Source: Tepidiforma bonchosmolovskayae (lineage in GTDB: Bacteria; Chloroflexota; Dehalococcoidia; Tepidiformales; Tepidiformaceae). From it: 64,000 nucleotides of DNA. Below the pieces are notes generated by a model that saw only the letters and a program-made list of their open reading frames with translations, was not told the DNA's origin and did not search any database. The DNA lies in assembly GCF_008838325.1 (NCBI RefSeq), contig NZ_CP042829.1:62001-126000 (forward strand), read 5' to 3'. Shown piece after piece: positions 13,037 to 18,113 of this stretch; within the stretch, counting starts at the first letter, position 1, and each line of letters opens with the position of its first letter. A program made the position numbers and the translations under genes.

Positions 13037-14281
13037 ATGAGCTTTGCAAAGAATCTCCGCTGCCGTGAATGTCACCGCGAGTACCCGCTCGAAGCGCGGC
13101 ATGTGTGCGACTTCTGCTTCGGGCCGGTTGAAGTTACCTACGACTACGAGGCCATCCAGAAGAATGTTTCGAGGGAGCGGATCGAACGGGGGCCGGCCTC
13201 GCTCTGGCGGTACCGGGATTTCCTGCCCTGTGACCCCGACTCCGCAATCGATATCGGCGCCGGGTTCACGCCGCTGGTCCGCGCGAAGAACCTGGGCAGG
13301 GCCCTCGGGCTGAACAACCTCTGGATCAAGAACGACACGGTCAACCCGACCTGGTCGTTCAAGGACCGTGTCGTCGCGGTCGCTGCGAGCCGCGCGCGGG
13401 AGCTGGGATACGACAAGCTGGCCTGCGCCAGCACGGGCAACCTGGCGAACAGCGTGAGCGCGCACGCCGCTGCGGCCGGGATGGAGGCAGTGGTCTTCAT
13501 CCCGCACGACCTCGAACTCGGAAAGGTGCTCGGCTCGAGCATCTACGGGCCGACGCTGGTGAAGGTACGCGGCAACTACGATGCGGTGAACCGCCTCTGC
13601 GCCGAGCTGGCCGGCTCGTACAACTGGGCGTTCGTCAATGTGAATGTCCGCCCGTACTACTCGGAAGGCTCGAAGACGCTCGGCTTCGAGGTTGCAGAGC
13701 AGCTTGGCTGGCGGGCCCCTGACCACTGTGTCGTGCCGATCGCCAGCGGTTCGCTCTTCGTGAAGATTCGAAAGGGGCTCCTGGAGCTCTGGAAGACCGG
13801 CCTAATCGATGAGCCGAAGACACGGATGAGCGGGGCGCAGGCCGCCGGCTGCTCGCCGGTCGCGACCGCATGGCAGGAAGGCTCGATGAACTTCCGCCCG
13901 CAGCGCCCCAACACGATCGCCAAGTCGCTCGCAATCGGGAACCCGGCCGACGGCTACTACAGCCTCGTCCAGCTGAAGGAGACGGGCGGCGCCTGCGGCA
14001 GCGTGACCGACGACGAGATCGTCGCCGGCATGAAGCTGCTGGCCGAGACGGAAGGCATCTTTGCCGAGACGGCCGGCGGCGTCACGATCGCTTCGCTGAA
14101 GCAGCTCGCCGAACAGGGCAGAATCCATCCTGACGAGCTCACCGTCGCGTTCATCACGGGCGCCGGGTTCAAGACGGTCGAAGCGGTGGCCGAGGCGCTC
14201 AACCCGCCGCTCGAGATTGACGCGACGATTGAGAGCTTCGAAGCTGCCTACGGTGCCCGCGTGGCACAGGGAGTCGCCTGA
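13037..14281 (+). CDS. metM (thrC-like): ThrC-family PLP enzyme, probable MetM-type homocysteine synthase (or threonine synthase)
   Basis: The 414-residue fold-type II PLP enzyme has an N-terminal zinc ribbon (Cys 9, 12, 24, 27). The PLP lysine is K109 in WSFKDR, the phosphate loop is STGNLANSV, and other blocks are RPYYSEGSKT and AETAGGVT. Sequence alone would suggest threonine synthase. However, it lies under a SAM-I riboswitch and is followed directly by a NIL-domain gene and a MoaD-like carrier. In Streptomyces, the ThrC homolog MetM takes sulfur from a thiocarboxylated carrier (MetO) and converts O-phosphohomoserine to homocysteine. The same gene pairing and the N-terminal zinc ribbon favour that role here. 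The ATG at 13037 has GGGAGG 6 bp upstream. It overlaps the next gene by 1 bp. Confidence 0.85.
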   Translation: MSFAKNLRCRECHREYPLEARHVCDFCFGPVEVTYDYEAIQKNVSRERIERGPASLWRYRDFLPCDPDSAIDIGAGFTPLVRAKNLGRALGLNNLWIKNDTVNPTWSFKDRVVAVAASRARELGYDKLACASTGNLANSVSAHAAAAGMEAVVFIPHDLELGKVLGSSIYGPTLVKVRGNYDAVNRLCAELAGSYNWAFVNVNVRPYYSEGSKTLGFEVAEQLGWRAPDHCVVPIASGSLFVKIRKGLLELWKTGLIDEPKTRMSGAQAAGCSPVATAWQEGSMNFRPQRPNTIAKSLAIGNPADGYYSLVQLKETGGACGSVTDDEIVAGMKLLAETEGIFAETAGGVTIASLKQLAEQGRIHPDELTVAFITGAGFKTVEAVAEALNPPLEIDATIESFEAAYGARVAQGVA

Positions 14282-14523
14282 TGGCCGTCAAACGCGTCCG
14301 GTTTACCTTCCCGGAGAACCTGATCCGGGAGCCGATTATTTACCGGCTCGGCCACGAGTTCCGGGTCATCACCAACGTGCGGATGGCCGATGTCGACGAA
14401 AAGACCGGGTGGGTTGTCCTCGAACTCGAGGGTGAGCCCGACGAGATCGAACGGAGCCTCGCCTGGGCACAGGAGCGTGGTGTCCGCGTCGACCCGGTGA
14501 CCGGGGACATCGTCGAAGGCTAG
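14281..14523 (+). CDS. NIL domain protein
   Basis: The 80-residue protein is a stand-alone NIL domain, the small ferredoxin-like fold found at the C-terminus of the methionine transporter ATPase MetN and in sulfur-assimilation proteins of methanogens. It contains FPENLIREPIIYRLGHEF and the VLELEGEPDEIERSLAW strand-helix pair. In MetN the domain binds methionine and inhibits transport. Here it may sense methionine or assist sulfur transfer, which is inference. Its ATG shares one base with the stop of the ThrC-like gene (TGATG), so translation is coupled. It lies under the same SAM riboswitch. Confidence 0.9.
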   Translation: MAVKRVRFTFPENLIREPIIYRLGHEFRVITNVRMADVDEKTGWVVLELEGEPDEIERSLAWAQERGVRVDPVTGDIVEG

Positions 14524-14603
14524 CCGGCATCGAAGGCACCGCACCCGCTGCCAGCCGCTGCAACCTGCAACCGAAACCTGCACCTGCAAGGAAGGATGAC
14601 ACC

Positions 14604-14885
14604 GTGCCCATCAATGTCCGCATTCCCCAGCCGCTCCGCCCGCTCACGGGCAACCAGCCGACGGTCACTGCCGAGGGTACGACCCTCGCGCTGCTCGTCG
14701 ACAACCTCGAACGTGCCTACCCGGGCATCAAGGAGCGGATGGTCGACGAAGCCGGGCAGATCCGTCGGTTCGTCAACATTTACGTCAATGGCGACGACGT
14801 CCGGTTCCTGGACGGCCTCGAGACGGCCCTGAAAGACGGGGACGAGGTGAGCATCGTACCCGCAGTCGCGGGCGGCGCGTACTGA
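14604..14885 (+). CDS. MoaD/ThiS-family sulfur carrier protein (MetO-like)
   Basis: The 93-residue ubiquitin-like protein has the beta-grasp pattern of MoaD/ThiS/CysO. It starts INVRIPQPLRPLTG and has a VDNLERAYPGIKERMVDE helix, a FVNIYVNGDDVRF strand pair and a DEVSIVPAVAGGAY C-terminus. Carriers of this type receive sulfur as a thiocarboxylate on a terminal Gly-Gly. Here two extra residues, Ala-Tyr, follow the Gly-Gly, so a peptidase would have to remove them first, as JAMM-type proteases do for some carriers. The start is GTG at 14604, with GGAAGGA 7 bp upstream. The ATG at 14596 is out of frame. It is the third gene of the riboswitch-controlled operon and the likely sulfur donor to the ThrC-like enzyme. 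Confidence 0.9.
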   Translation: MPINVRIPQPLRPLTGNQPTVTAEGTTLALLVDNLERAYPGIKERMVDEAGQIRRFVNIYVNGDDVRFLDGLETALKDGDEVSIVPAVAGGAY

Positions 14886-14895
14886 GGCCGCACGC

Positions 14896-17346
14896 TCAGG
14901 CGTTCCGGACCGCTTCTTCCAGCCGCCGCGTTGCCTCCTGGTAGGAGGTGCCGGGCTCGAACCGGATGGGCTCGCCGATGCTGACGCGGACCCGCGCCCG
15001 CGGGTGGGGCAGCCATTTGCCTTCGTAGAAGCCCGGCCGGAGCACATCAATCCGCATCGGCAGGACGGGCACCCCGGTCTCGACCGCCAGCAGGCCCGTG
15101 CCCGACTTGAAGGGCTGCATCGGACCGATGACGGTCAGCTTCCCCTCGGGGAAGATCAACACGTTCCACCCCTCGCCAAGCATCTTCGCGACGTATTCCA
15201 GGCTCTCGCGGACCCCGGACCCCTCTTTCGCGAACGGGAAGGCGTTCCCGAGCAGACTGGCGAAAAAGCCCCGCAGCCGGTTTCCGAAGATGTCACTGGC
15301 GGCGGCTGCGATCGCAACCCGGCGCCGGAAGCCGGGGGGCATGCTCCGCAGGAGCATCGCCTGGTCGAGGTGCATGTTGTGGTTGGAGATGATGAGACAG
15401 GGCTGCTGAACGGTCGCGAAACGCTCCCGGCCGCGGACCTCCACGCTATAGCCGACGCGAAGCAGCGGGAACACGAAGAAGGAGAGGAGGGCATGGCGGA
15501 GCCACTGGACCGTGCGCCAGCGCGGCCAGGTGGGGAACCTTCGGATGCGCACCTTCCGTTCGCCTTTGGCTACCATGCGCCGAAGCTCACCGATGGTAGT
15601 CTGCGGGCCGACGTCGGCATCGTCCACGTAGACGCCCAGCTCGTCTTCGACGGCAGAGAGCAGCTCGACCCGAGCCAGCGAATCGAGCCCGAGGTCTGCC
15701 CCAAGGTTCGTTGCATCGTCGAGCGGTGCGTCGGTGCGGCGGAGCGCCGCGATGATGCGGAGGAGCGGGTCGGCAACTTCCTGCTGCGGGGCCGCTGGCG
15801 GCGGCCGGTGTTCACGGAGGTACGCCTCGACGAGCGGCCGGCGCACCTTCAGCGTGTGCGTCCGCGGGAAGTCCGGCTCCGGCCACGTGCTCCAGCCGAG
15901 AATCTGCTGGCGGGCGTCGAGCTGCTGGTTCGCCCGCCGGACCGCTTCCGCCGCTGAGCCGGGCTCGGCCTCCGCGATGACCGCGTGGAGGCGCACCTGC
16001 CCATCGACCGCGAGCCCGAGCACGACGGCGTCCGTCACGCCCGGCTGCCGCCGGAGGACAGCCTCGATGTCCTCGGGGTACACGTTCTGGCCGTCGGCGA
16101 GGACGATGAGGTCCTTCTTCCGGCCCTTGAGGTACAGGTAGCCATCCTGCAGGTAGCCAAGGTCGCCGGTGCGGTACCAGTCGCCATCGAATGCCGCCGC
16201 GGTCGCCTCGGCTGCCTGCCAGTACCCAACGAAAACGTTCTCGCCGCGGGTGAGCACCTCGCCGTCATCGGCGATGCGGACCTGCTGGCCGGGCAGGGGC
16301 CGGCCGACGCTGCCGACGCGGCGGTCTTCGCGCGGGTTGATGGTGACGATCGGGGCGCACTCGGTCGTTCCGTAGCCTTCAACGACGGCGATGCCCATCG
16401 CCTCCCACTTCAGCTGCACCTCGGGGTCGAGCGGAGCGCCGCCGCTTGCAACGAAATCGAGGGCGCCCCCAAAGCGCGAGAGGACGGGGCGGAAGACGAA
16501 CCGGCGCCCGCGCGCGGGGAGCGGCTGGGCGATCCGGCGCATCATCTTGAGGAGGCCCATGCGGCCGTGGGCCGCCGCCTCCCGTTCGATACCGGCCATC
16601 AGCAGGCTGAGCACCTGCGGCACGCCGATGATCACGGTCGGCTTCCACTCCTGCATGACGCGGCTCAGGGATGCGGGCTGCCGGCTGGCCGGGTAACAGA
16701 CTGCGGCGCCGGCCGCAATGGGCGCGAAGCAGCCGGCAGTCTGTTCGAACATGTGGCTCAGGGGAAGCAGCGACAGCATGCGCGTCCCCGGGCCGATATC
16801 GATGACCGACAGGCCGGATTCGACGTTCGCCACGATGTTCCGGTGGGTCAGCATCACGCCCTTCGGGTCGCCGGTCGTGCCGGAGGTGAAGATAATCTCG
16901 GCCAGGTCGCTCCCCGAAAGCGGCGGGCCGGCAAAGGGACCATCGAGCGGCGGGCGCACGTCCTCGAGGACGAAGGCGGGCACCTCGAGCCGGGCAAGCT
17001 CCTCGGCCTGGCTTCGCCCTGCGAAGGCTGCCTTCGGCTCCACCCTTGCCACAACGCGGGCAACGAACTCCGGCGAGCTGCGGACATCGAGCGGCACCAG
17101 CACGCCGCCGGCGATGAACGTGCCGAACATCGCAGCGACCCATTCGGGCTGGTTCGGGGCCCAGGCGATGACACGGTCCCCCTTGCTCACTCCGCTGCTG
17201 GCCATGAGGCGGGCCCAGGCGTGGGAGCGCCGCAGCAGGTCGGCATAGGTGTAGCGTGTGGTGCGCACGCCGGCCCGCATCGTCACTGCCACCCGGTCCG
17301 GGTAGCGCGCTGCCGAAGTTTCGAGCAGCTCGACGAGCGTGTTCAT
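14896..17346 (-). CDS. Acyl-AMP ligase / acyl carrier / PlsC acyltransferase fusion
   Basis: The 816-residue protein joins three domains. Residues 1-510 are an ANL-superfamily adenylation domain: TSGTTGDPKG at 154-163, YGTTE near 325, YRTGDLG near 391 and a catalytic Lys at 500. Residues 530-590 are an acyl carrier domain, with the phosphopantetheine serine S556 in LGLDSL. Residues 610-816 are a PlsC-type glycerolipid acyltransferase with NHNMHLD at 655-661 and FPEG at 732-735. The design suggests fatty acid activation, loading on the fused carrier and direct transfer to a lysophospholipid or related acceptor at the membrane. Its ATG overlaps the upstream hydrolase gene by 4 bp. It is convergent with the sulfur carrier gene, with a 10 bp gap. 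Confidence 0.9.
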   Translation of the reverse strand: MNTLVELLETSAARYPDRVAVTMRAGVRTTRYTYADLLRRSHAWARLMASSGVSKGDRVIAWAPNQPEWVAAMFGTFIAGGVLVPLDVRSSPEFVARVVARVEPKAAFAGRSQAEELARLEVPAFVLEDVRPPLDGPFAGPPLSGSDLAEIIFTSGTTGDPKGVMLTHRNIVANVESGLSVIDIGPGTRMLSLLPLSHMFEQTAGCFAPIAAGAAVCYPASRQPASLSRVMQEWKPTVIIGVPQVLSLLMAGIEREAAAHGRMGLLKMMRRIAQPLPARGRRFVFRPVLSRFGGALDFVASGGAPLDPEVQLKWEAMGIAVVEGYGTTECAPIVTINPREDRRVGSVGRPLPGQQVRIADDGEVLTRGENVFVGYWQAAEATAAAFDGDWYRTGDLGYLQDGYLYLKGRKKDLIVLADGQNVYPEDIEAVLRRQPGVTDAVVLGLAVDGQVRLHAVIAEAEPGSAAEAVRRANQQLDARQQILGWSTWPEPDFPRTHTLKVRRPLVEAYLREHRPPPAAPQQEVADPLLRIIAALRRTDAPLDDATNLGADLGLDSLARVELLSAVEDELGVYVDDADVGPQTTIGELRRMVAKGERKVRIRRFPTWPRWRTVQWLRHALLSFFVFPLLRVGYSVEVRGRERFATVQQPCLIISNHNMHLDQAMLLRSMPPGFRRRVAIAAAASDIFGNRLRGFFASLLGNAFPFAKEGSGVRESLEYVAKMLGEGWNVLIFPEGKLTVIGPMQPFKSGTGLLAVETGVPVLPMRIDVLRPGFYEGKWLPHPRARVRVSIGEPIRFEPGTSYQEATRRLEEAVRNA

Positions 17347-18113
17347 GCAGGCAGGGAGCGCGCGAACTCGCGCACCTTCAGGTCGGCATCACGGACGATG
17401 GGCCGGAAGTGGCTGAAGCAGAGGGTGTCGAAGTCCAGCTCCGCCAGCCTGCGGATGGAGGCGGCGGCCTGGGCCATGTCCCGGGTGAACAGGCGGTGCG
17501 GCGGCATGAGCCTGCCGAAGCGATACTGCATGGCATCGCCGACGATCAGCACGCCGCGCTCCGGGAAGTGGAGCGCGATGGAGCCCGGCGTGTGACCGGG
17601 GACGTGGATGATGCGCATCCCGCCAAGCGCCGGGAATTCGTCACCATCGCGGAGGTAGACGTCGATGCGCGCCGGGCCGGGGTCGACCCGCAACAGATAC
17701 GGCTCGCAGATCCGCGCGAGAAGGGCATGGGCGAACGGGCTCGGGAGCGGTCCGTCGCCTTCGACGTCGCGGGCTTCGGCCAGGTGGATCCCGGTCCGCG
17801 CGGGCACCCACCGCTGAAGTTCGGGGAGGCCGCCCACGTGGTCGAGGTGGGCGTGGGTGATTATGATGTCGCGAATGTCGTCCGGCGAGCGGCCGATCTC
17901 GCGCACAGCTGTAAGGATCCGCTCACCTGAGCCCGGAGCACCGGTGTCGACCACCGTGATGCCGTCATCAACGAGCAGGTAGGCGCGCGAGGCGCGGGTA
18001 CGTACCTGGTAAAGCCCGGGAACCACTTCGACGCAGGGGCGGAGCGGGAGCGGTTTCAATTCGTTCCAGCGCTCCTGCCACACCGGCCGGCGGTTGAGGG
18101 CGGGGTTGGTCAT
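17343..18113 (-). CDS. Metallo-beta-lactamase-fold hydrolase
   Basis: The 256-residue protein has the dinuclear zinc motif ITHAHLDHVGG (HxHxDH) near the middle, followed by the HVPGHTPGS block, the GDAMQY block and a late SHFRP histidine. This places it in the metallo-beta-lactamase hydrolase superfamily, closest in layout to MBL-fold thioesterase or glyoxalase II-like enzymes. Its stop overlaps the start of the ligase-ACP-acyltransferase gene by 4 bp, so the two are coupled. A thioesterase or lactonase role in the same lipid pathway is plausible but inferred. The ATG at 18113 is chosen because upstream residues look non-coding. A TATCCT hexamer lies 9 bp before it. Confidence 0.88.
   Translation of the reverse strand: MTNPALNRRPVWQERWNELKPLPLRPCVEVVPGLYQVRTRASRAYLLVDDGITVVDTGAPGSGERILTAVREIGRSPDDIRDIIITHAHLDHVGGLPELQRWVPARTGIHLAEARDVEGDGPLPSPFAHALLARICEPYLLRVDPGPARIDVYLRDGDEFPALGGMRIIHVPGHTPGSIALHFPERGVLIVGDAMQYRFGRLMPPHRLFTRDMAQAAASIRRLAELDFDTLCFSHFRPIVRDADLKVREFARSLPA

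What the first reader, a model, noticed from the sequence alone, without database searches (positions are those of the whole stretch)
14896..18113. Single-chain ligase-carrier-acyltransferase coupled to a metallo-beta-lactamase-fold hydrolase
The 816-residue protein joins acyl-AMP ligase, acyl carrier and PlsC domains, each with intact key residues (TSGTTG, S556, NHNMHLD, FPEG). It would let a free fatty acid be activated, held and transferred to a lipid in one protein, independent of CoA. The coupled hydrolase could edit or release the thioester. The reaction is an inference and may describe a distinct lipid-remodelling route.
Basis: partly seen in the sequence, partly recalled or inferred. 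Interest (0 to 1): 0.55.

Follow-up and report, generated by a model that had tools for sequence, protein, structure and literature searches.

The report
Fused fatty-acid-to-phospholipid salvage enzyme
A Tepidiforma-like bacterium carries one protein that probably activates a free fatty acid, holds it on a built-in carrier arm and attaches it to a one-chain membrane lipid; in some tiny host-dependent bacteria a relative of it is the only enzyme of its acyltransferase family that we found.

Summary
Window 14896-17346 (-) encodes an 816-aa acyl-AMP ligase / acyl carrier / PlsC-type acyltransferase; its start overlaps by ATGA the stop of an intact metallo-beta-lactamase-fold (MBL) gene. The genome (Tepidiforma or close kin, Chloroflexota) also has ketoacyl synthases, free ACPs, PlsX, PlsY and another PlsC. 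The fusion is a family: key residues of all three domains are invariant or nearly so in 42 rows. Best reading: Aas-like salvage (fatty acid + ATP -> acyl-carrier -> lysophospholipid), with the carrier built in, the domain order reversed and a ligase not closest to Aas. That the carrier is phosphopantetheinylated gains support: in 15 of 15 Patescibacteria/Dependentiae-type loci an AcpS gene is the nearest gene seen upstream, and in 5 of 7 Patescibacteria genomes tested (0 of 4 Dependentiae-type) the fused carrier is the only one found. In those 11 genomes the fusion is the only PF01553 acyltransferase found and PlsY was found in none. These are drafts of unstated completeness. The MBL is a Chloroflexota accessory (21 of 23 loci; 0 of 15 in the others) of unproven role. 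No activity has been measured. New variant of a known kind.

The parts
14896..17346 (-). CDS, 816 aa: ligase - acyl carrier - PlsC acyltransferase (stop codon included)
15817..17346 (-). acyl-AMP ligase domain, residues 1-510 (PF00501 8-376 plus C-terminal subdomain)
   Evidence: fold matches to FadD13, MatB, MenE
16858..16887 (-). ATP-binding loop TSGTTGDPKG, residues 154-163
   Evidence: T154-T158, P161, K162, G163 in 42/42 rows, G159 in 41/42
15847..15849 (-). K500, adenylation lysine (motif A10; label recalled)
   Evidence: 42/42 rows
15559..15768 (-). acyl carrier domain, about residues 527-596
   Evidence: PF00550 534-590; ACPs in the PDB
15679..15681 (-). S556, expected phosphopantetheine attachment serine (DSL)
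   Evidence: 42/42 rows
15451..15516 (-). predicted helix 611-632 in a basic, partly hydrophobic stretch ahead of PlsC; membrane contact is inferred
   Evidence: helix 611-632 in the model; 8 K/R and 1 D/E in residues 601-640
14899..15549 (-). PlsC-type acyltransferase part, residues 600-816
   Evidence: PF01553 635-766; only PDB sequence match at E <= 0.1 is PlsC 5kym, E 1.7e-8
15364..15381 (-). HX4D motif, H656-D661
   Evidence: H 41/41, D 40/41 rows
15142..15153 (-). FPEG motif, residues 732-735
   Evidence: P733 and E734 41/41, G735 40/41 rows
17343..18113 (-). MBL-fold hydrolase, 256 aa, overlapping the fusion gene by 4 bases
17343..17346 (-). ATGA stop/start overlap of the two genes
17838..17855 (-). 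HxHxDH motif of the MBL (residues 87-92)
   Evidence: H87, H89, D91, H92 invariant in 18 homologues

Best explanation
A self-contained acyl-salvage enzyme. Step 1 (inferred): a free fatty acid is adenylated with ATP by the ligase. Step 2 (inferred): the acyl group passes to a phosphopantetheine arm on S556 of the carrier in the same chain. Step 3 (inferred): the PlsC domain, at the membrane, moves it from the carrier to a lysophospholipid or lysophosphatidate, giving back a two-chain lipid. It works like E. coli Aas, which binds a separate ACP, but with the ACP built in. In the window's organism, which has ketoacyl synthases, free ACPs, PlsX, PlsY and another PlsC, this would be repair or recycling. 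In the Patescibacteria that carry it (PlsY found in 0 of 7 tested, a CdsA-type piece in 1 of 11) it most likely re-acylates lysolipids taken from other cells. In Dependentiae-type genomes (CdsA and CDP-alcohol transferases found in 4 of 4) it most likely supplies phosphatidate from scavenged lysophosphatidate. The MBL is a Chloroflexota accessory, perhaps a thioesterase or lipid hydrolase (a guess).
For: Three domains with invariant or nearly invariant key residues in 42 rows from Chloroflexota, Patescibacteria, Dependentiae and others. AlphaFold model (mean pLDDT 83.9) aligns with carrier-loading NRPS structures: holo-EntF, thioester-forming (643 columns, rmsd 4.7, rank 17) and LgrA, thiolation state (523 residues within model 1-597, Z 44.0, rmsd 3.9, rank 50). 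AcpS gene upstream in 15 of 15 Patescibacteria/Dependentiae-type loci and in one Chloroflexota locus, L024; Pfam ACPS in 5 of 5 of these tested. The fused carrier is the only PF00550 hit in 5 of 11 such genomes, all five Patescibacteria. PF01553: one hit each in 11 of 11, at the fusion (G010: on a separate short contig); PlsY 0 of 11; PF00109 1 of 11; the nine Chloroflexota/Trueperaceae holders searched alongside, G000 included, have PlsY and PF00109 in 9 of 9. PlsC part scores best with Aas-type PRK08633 (61.9 bits), then AGP_acyltrn (52.9) and PRK06814 (50.8). A CdsA gene is the second ORF downstream in the Trueperaceae locus L028. Aas precedent: passages of PMC13170283.
Against: No biochemistry. 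The ligase looks like CoA ligases, so acyl-CoA formation is possible. The acceptor cannot be read from sequence. Close relatives of the PlsC part stand alone in L046 and L047, so the fusion is not obligatory. The two Proteobacteria-labelled genomes (G005, G012) have PF00109, PlsY and two further PF01553 each and no AcpS was found beside their fusion. All 4 Dependentiae-type genomes and 2 of 7 Patescibacteria have a second, small carrier frame. The genomes behind the absence counts are drafts of unstated completeness, and PlsX was not searched in them. Error between domains of the model was not seen.
Confidence: 0.7

Rival explanations
1. One-protein phosphatidate synthase: the PlsC domain acylates glycerol 3-phosphate as well as lysophosphatidate, standing in for PlsX/PlsY/PlsC in host-dependent genomes.
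For: Dependentiae-type genomes have CdsA and CDP-alcohol transferases (4 of 4) but no PlsY and no other PF01553 hit, so phosphatidate must come from somewhere.
Against: PlsC-type enzymes normally act on the second position (family knowledge, recalled); host lysophosphatidate or diacylglycerol could be the source; PF01148 was found in only 1 of 11 Patescibacteria genomes, a 64-position piece.
Confidence: 0.13
2. An acyl-CoA ligase with a passenger carrier: the enzyme mainly makes acyl-CoA from fatty acids, and PlsC uses acyl-CoA or free acyl-ACP.
For: Best curated and many best structural matches of the ligase are CoA ligases.
Against: S556 42/42; AcpS upstream in 15 of 15 loci and sole carrier in 5 of 11 genomes.
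Confidence: 0.1
3. The acceptor is not a glycerophospholipid: acylation of a sugar, amino acid or specialised lipid.
For: PlsC-superfamily enzymes vary in acceptor (family knowledge, recalled); the acceptor here is unknown.
Against: The adjacent genes looked at in the window (acyl-CoA dehydrogenase, ThiS, NIL, PALP) are no such cluster; partners in relatives are AcpS, MBL, alpha/beta hydrolases, MFS and CdsA; the PlsC part is nearest to Aas and PlsC.
Confidence: 0.07

Closest known systems
E. coli Aas (acyltransferase/acyl-ACP synthetase) with LplT
   Same: Ligase and PlsC in one chain; acyl group held on ACP; lysophospholipid re-acylation (passages of PMC13170283).
   Different: Aas has PlsC first and then the ligase (PlsC at 5-138 of the 719-position model PRK08043; rest recalled) and binds a separate ACP; here ligase-carrier-PlsC. 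Curated Aas models are not reached, and no Aas model is among the 25 of 81 families shown for the ligase. No LplT-type gene among the window neighbours looked at.
LplT-Aas single-chain proteins (NCBIfam PRK08633 and PRK06814; that these models are LplT-Aas fusions is inferred from their length and recalled)
   Same: The PlsC part scores 61.9 and 50.8 bits with them. Such fusions are mentioned in PMC8590670 (passage).
   Different: No transporter domain here, order reversed, carrier present; far below the cut-offs of 1221 and 1349 bits.
AasS of Vibrio and AasC of Chlamydia
   Same: Acyl-ACP synthetases that use free fatty acids (starts of the abstracts of PMC11271967 and PMC5693948, listing).
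   Different: Separate ligases acting on free ACP (recalled); here carrier and acyltransferase are in the chain.
Fatty acyl-AMP ligases (FAALs), including reported fusions with lysophospholipid acyltransferases
   Same: Activation onto a carrier. PMC8460268 says in one sentence that a few bacterial FAAL-like domains are fused with lysophospholipid acyltransferases (passages).
   Different: The ligase here matches FACL-type models best; the FAAL-specific insertion was not tested. The passages seen mention no built-in carrier, AcpS linkage or Patescibacteria.
NRPS adenylation-carrier modules (EntF, LgrA)
   Same: Predicted arrangement of ligase and carrier.
   Different: Followed here by a PlsC acyltransferase.

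Membership tests
Aas (acyl-ACP synthetase / lysophospholipid acyltransferase) | Ligase and PlsC domains in one chain | tested here: met
Aas (acyl-ACP synthetase / lysophospholipid acyltransferase) | PlsC-then-ligase order, no carrier domain (recalled) | tested here: not met
   ligase-carrier-PlsC
Aas (acyl-ACP synthetase / lysophospholipid acyltransferase) | Reaches curated Aas models | tested here: not met
   PRK08633 186.6 of 1221 bits, PRK06814 170 of 1349 (best 25 of 113 shown); PlsC part 35.2 of 886 for PRK08043
Aas (acyl-ACP synthetase / lysophospholipid acyltransferase) | LplT-type transporter fused or adjacent | tested here: not met
   window neighbours are MBL, acyl-CoA dehydrogenase, ThiS, NIL, PALP. 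MFS genes lie near the fusion in 6 relatives' loci; the 5 scanned with NCBIfam hit no LplT model
Aas (acyl-ACP synthetase / lysophospholipid acyltransferase) | Lysophospholipid acylation from free fatty acid and ATP | not testable with these tools
   needs an assay
PlsC / LPLAT acyltransferases (PF01553) | HX4D and PEG motifs in a PF01553 domain | tested here: met
Acyl carrier domain (PF00550) | Serine in DSL | tested here: met
   S556 42/42 rows
Acyl carrier domain (PF00550) | Phosphopantetheine on that serine | not testable with these tools
   indirect: AcpS beside the fusion in relatives; one PF01648 hit in the window's genome, not adjacent
Adenylate-forming ligases (PF00501) | ATP loop, A5 Glu, A7 Asp, A8 Arg, A10 Lys (labels recalled) | tested here: met
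   E329, D395, R409, K500 42/42
Fatty acyl-AMP ligase (FAAL) | FAAL-specific insertion and CoA-rejecting pocket | not tested
   only indirect: best matches are FACL-type
MBL-fold metallo-hydrolases (PF00753) | HxHxDH plus distal His, Asp, His | tested here: met
   invariant in 18 rows
Subclass B3 beta-lactamases | Curated model cut-off | tested here: not met
   63.7 of 240 bits for NF033105

The most novel reading that the evidence does not exclude
In a minority of Patescibacteria, and with a second carrier perhaps also in Dependentiae-type bacteria, this single protein plus the AcpS encoded next to it is the whole enzymatic machinery for forming acyl-ester membrane lipids: scavenged fatty acids and lysolipids become two-chain phospholipids without de novo fatty-acid synthesis, PlsY or another PlsC. 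That would give a concrete enzyme for the unresolved lipid supply of these cells. (Lowered from 0.35 to 0.30 on recount: the sole-carrier genomes are 5 of 7 Patescibacteria but 0 of 4 Dependentiae-type, and PlsX was not searched there.)
Probability: 0.3. Interest if true: 0.8.

Novelty: new variant of a known kind. Interest (0 to 1): 0.58.

Why it matters
How Patescibacteria and Dependentiae obtain membrane lipids is open. [quoted passage not shown] PMC6561590 (passages) found no evidence of lipid biosynthesis in a Dependentiae isolate. Here is a probably ACP-dependent enzyme with an AcpS beside it in some members of those lineages, and it can be tested in E. coli with one or two genes. For enzymology, an Aas-like reaction with the carrier covalently built in makes the hand-over from ligase to carrier to PlsC accessible in one chain. 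For the window's own organism it is a modest salvage enzyme.

Tried and rejected
Plain Aas homologue: rejected. Vestigial carrier: rejected (S556 42/42, AcpS linkage). Only acyltransferase of the window's genome: rejected; it has a second PF01553, two PlsY, one PlsX, two more PF00550 hits and PF00109 hits. MBL as obligatory partner: rejected; a relative of the window's MBL (phmmer, E <= 1e-8) lies beside the gene in 21 of 23 Chloroflexota loci (not L024, which has only 726 bases upstream, nor L026) and in 0 of 15 Patescibacteria/Dependentiae-type loci. That threshold misses diverged MBLs: L026 has another Lactamase_B gene downstream. Beta-lactamase: below the curated cut-offs. Defence: one weak PADLOC hit, for the MBL only, E 7.7e-5. 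LplT next door: MFS genes near the fusion in L030, L032, L040, L043, L048 (none hit an LplT model) and L038 (Pfam only).

Led nowhere: no Tepidiforma paper in the 10 of 7,490 listed. Promoter-like sites 0, expected 0.1; terminator-like 4, expected 2.0, sd 1.8. VIA-align rows spanned the ligase and little else (model 1-513), so the PlsC part was barely tested there.

Rows dropped: the 42-row tally and the tree leave out duplicate loci (L055, L070-L073, own-genome L002 and L008) and L046/L047 (PlsC only). The second, 1060-aa fusion of L040 scored under my 600-bit limit: it is not in the tally and stands in the tree as 'L040_lig', on a long branch outside the Chloroflexota group. Alignment A1, used for the model and, holds 31 of the rows. 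In one search, 15 of 17 AcpS (one of them the window genome's own) show both patterns: L032 failed G.D only because 30 residues were scanned (GCD is visible), L056 failed the KEA pattern.
Full report
What is there. Window 14896-17346 (-) is one 816-aa ORF with AMP-binding (8-376), PP-binding (534-590) and Acyltransferase (635-766) domains. Its start overlaps the stop of a 256-aa MBL-fold gene, 17343-18113 (-), in ATGA. Both look intact. In 42 aligned family rows K500 and S556 are 42/42; of the 41 rows that reach PlsC, H656 and E734 are 41/41 and D661 is 40/41. The MBL has its seven metal-ligand positions (label recalled) invariant in 18 homologues.

Where it is. The nearest named relatives are Tepidiforma proteins at 86-89% identity (L010, L011, L013), so the genome (2.75 Mb, one contig, 98.58% complete) is a Tepidiforma or close kin, phylum Chloroflexota. 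It has two PF01553 hits (this one and one in a 257-aa frame), two PlsY, one PlsX, three PF00550 hits (this one and two in small frames) and one PF01648 (AcpS) hit, plus eight PF00109 hits, four of them near full length. The rest of fatty-acid synthesis was not searched. So the organism need not depend on this protein for phospholipids.

The family. Of 45 loci, 36 encode the full fusion, one (L042) is cut by its contig end, two (L046, L047) match only the PlsC part and six (L049-L054) only the ligase. By the records' titles and the tree, holders are Chloroflexota, Patescibacteria, Dependentiae/Babeliales, one Trueperaceae and two Proteobacteria-labelled drafts. In 379 genomes drawn from the phylum of L030 (Patescibacteria by its record), 5, L030's own included, match nearly the whole profile and 10 more only its ligase part, at E <= 1e-60; so it is rare there. 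In the tree (quick method, midpoint root, long branches flagged) 24 Chloroflexota rows, SAR202 included, form one group (SH-aLRT 96); the Dependentiae-type and Proteobacteria-labelled rows lie inside a 13-row group with Patescibacteria (100); L056-L059 lie outside it. This suggests exchange between host-dependent lineages and is not a dated history.

Carrier loading. In the Patescibacteria and Dependentiae-type loci (11: L029, L030, L031, L032, L034, L035, L037, L039, L042, L043, L048; 4 more: L056-L059) an AcpS-like gene lies upstream in the same direction in 15 of 15, from a few bases of overlap to a gap of 693 bases in L035. Pfam confirmed ACPS in the four of these tested, L030, L035, L056 and L059; the others rest on a profile built from the first eleven. 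One Chloroflexota locus, L024, has it too (Pfam-confirmed). It was found neither beside the fusion in the two Proteobacteria-labelled loci (L033, L045) nor in the other Chloroflexota loci. L034 and L042 come from records titled only 'bacterium'; the tree puts them with Dependentiae (99).

Gene content of host-dependent holders. The set is 11 genomes: 7 Patescibacteria (G001-G004, G008, G011, G013) and 4 Dependentiae-type (G006, G007, G009, G010). PlsY: 0 of 11. PF00109: 1 of 11 (G003). PF01553: one hit each, at the fusion, 11 of 11 (in G010 on a separate short contig; its fusion is cut by a contig end). PF00550: only the fusion in 5 of 7 Patescibacteria (G001, G002, G004, G011, G013) and 0 of 4 Dependentiae-type; the other six genomes have one further small frame. 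In the same calls the nine Chloroflexota/Trueperaceae holders, G000 included, gave PlsY in 9 of 9 and PF00109 in 9 of 9, each with at least two PF01553 hits, and the two Proteobacteria-labelled genomes gave one PlsY, one PF00109 and three PF01553 each; the 14 control genomes rang in 8 (PlsY), 14 (PF00109) and 10 (PF01553). PF01148 (CdsA type) and PF01066 (CDP-alcohol transferase) were each found in 4 of 4 Dependentiae-type genomes; in 11 Patescibacteria (the seven plus G240, G271, G277, G279) PF01148 in 1 of 11 (a 64-position piece in G240) and PF01066 in 4 of 11 (G003, G008, G013, G240). These are drafts whose completeness the tool does not state, so single absences mean little; the pattern over 11 means more. 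The contig of L031 carries L21, RecR and DnaB genes near the fusion, and L029 and L037 share that order, which speaks against a stray contig there.

Mechanism. The model (mean pLDDT 83.9, pTM 0.75; error between domains not seen) aligns its ligase and carrier with carrier-loading NRPS structures: holo-EntF, thioester-forming (rank 17), and LgrA, thiolation state (Z 44.0, rmsd 3.9, 523 residues, rank 50); the higher ranks are mostly free-standing ligases. The PlsC part matches PlsC 5kym (E 1.7e-8); its best curated match is Aas-type PRK08633 (61.9 bits), then AGP_acyltrn (52.9). The ligase's best is PRK06187, a FACL subfamily, with no Aas model among the 25 of 81 shown. So an independent assembly is likelier than a permuted Aas. 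Activation, loading and transfer are inferred from family knowledge. E. coli Aas has a high-affinity ACP site, forms bound acyl-ACP from free fatty acid and passes it to lysophospholipids (passages of PMC13170283); the built-in carrier is a natural covalent version of that.

Accessory genes. A relative of the MBL is beside the gene in 21 of 23 Chloroflexota loci (same strand in 17, divergent in L021, L022, L036, L044) and in 0 of 15 Patescibacteria/Dependentiae-type loci. The MBL model (pLDDT 90.6) matches TTHA1429, B3 lactamases, LACTB2 and PqsE, which fixes no substrate. Alpha/beta hydrolases lie near the gene in L024, L026, L043 and L048, MFS transporters in L030, L032, L038, L040, L043 and L048, and CdsA is the second ORF downstream in L028. 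These fit lipid recycling but are scattered.

Literature. PMC7242380 (passages): CPR lipids' source elusive, lysolipids enriched, ACP-requiring enzymes not identified in its CPR genomes, though some Nealsonbacteria have part of FAS-II, PlsY and PlsC. PMC6561590 (passages): no evidence of lipid biosynthesis in a Dependentiae isolate. PMC12455944 (passages): transfer of acpP and of a lysophospholipase gene into Patescibacteria. PMC8460268 (passages): one sentence on FAAL-like domains fused with lysophospholipid acyltransferases, so ligase-acyltransferase fusions as such are in print. I saw no paper on the ligase-carrier-PlsC protein, its AcpS linkage or its presence in Patescibacteria in the listings (2 of 2 papers; 20 of 141; 20 of 716; 20 of 1,078; 25 of 63; 20 of 2,224; 7 of 8; 12 of 5,418; 5 of 5). 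These are capped listings from a library without most subscription journals and without preprints, so the absence is weak.

Verdict. Observation confirmed; interpretation partly supported. It works like Aas, is not a member of the Aas family as curated, and is best filed as a new variant of ACP-dependent lysophospholipid salvage. The window's own copy is of moderate interest; being the only PF01553 enzyme found in some host-dependent bacteria raises the family.

Noticed in passing
L060 1489-3999 (-), genome G183 from the Patescibacteria sample: An alpha/beta hydrolase (Hydrolase_4) in front of an AMP-binding ligase in one 837-aa frame: lipid hydrolysis and fatty-acid activation in one chain?
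   Followed up: partly
L040 1990-8553: Two tandem ligase-carrier-PlsC genes (1060-aa frame and 904-aa frame) on either side of the MBL gene, with an MFS gene following.
   Followed up: partly
L046 5752-6690, L047 5404-6591: Stand-alone PlsC genes 74% and 64% identical to the fusion's C-terminal part; tblastn found no other part of the fusion in the locus.
   Followed up: partly
L034, L039, L042 upstream of AcpS: Two conserved ORFs (928-954 aa and 423-433 aa) precede AcpS and the fusion in Dependentiae-type loci; the L034 copies have no Pfam match at E <= 0.001.
   Followed up: no
window 13037-14885 (+): Threonine-synthase-like PALP, a NIL-domain protein and a ThiS-family protein in a row, convergent with the fusion gene.
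   Followed up: no
L061-L069: Nine of the 379 sampled genomes (besides G183) have 547-592-aa ligases related to the ligase domain, without the carrier or PlsC part of the profile.
   Followed up: no
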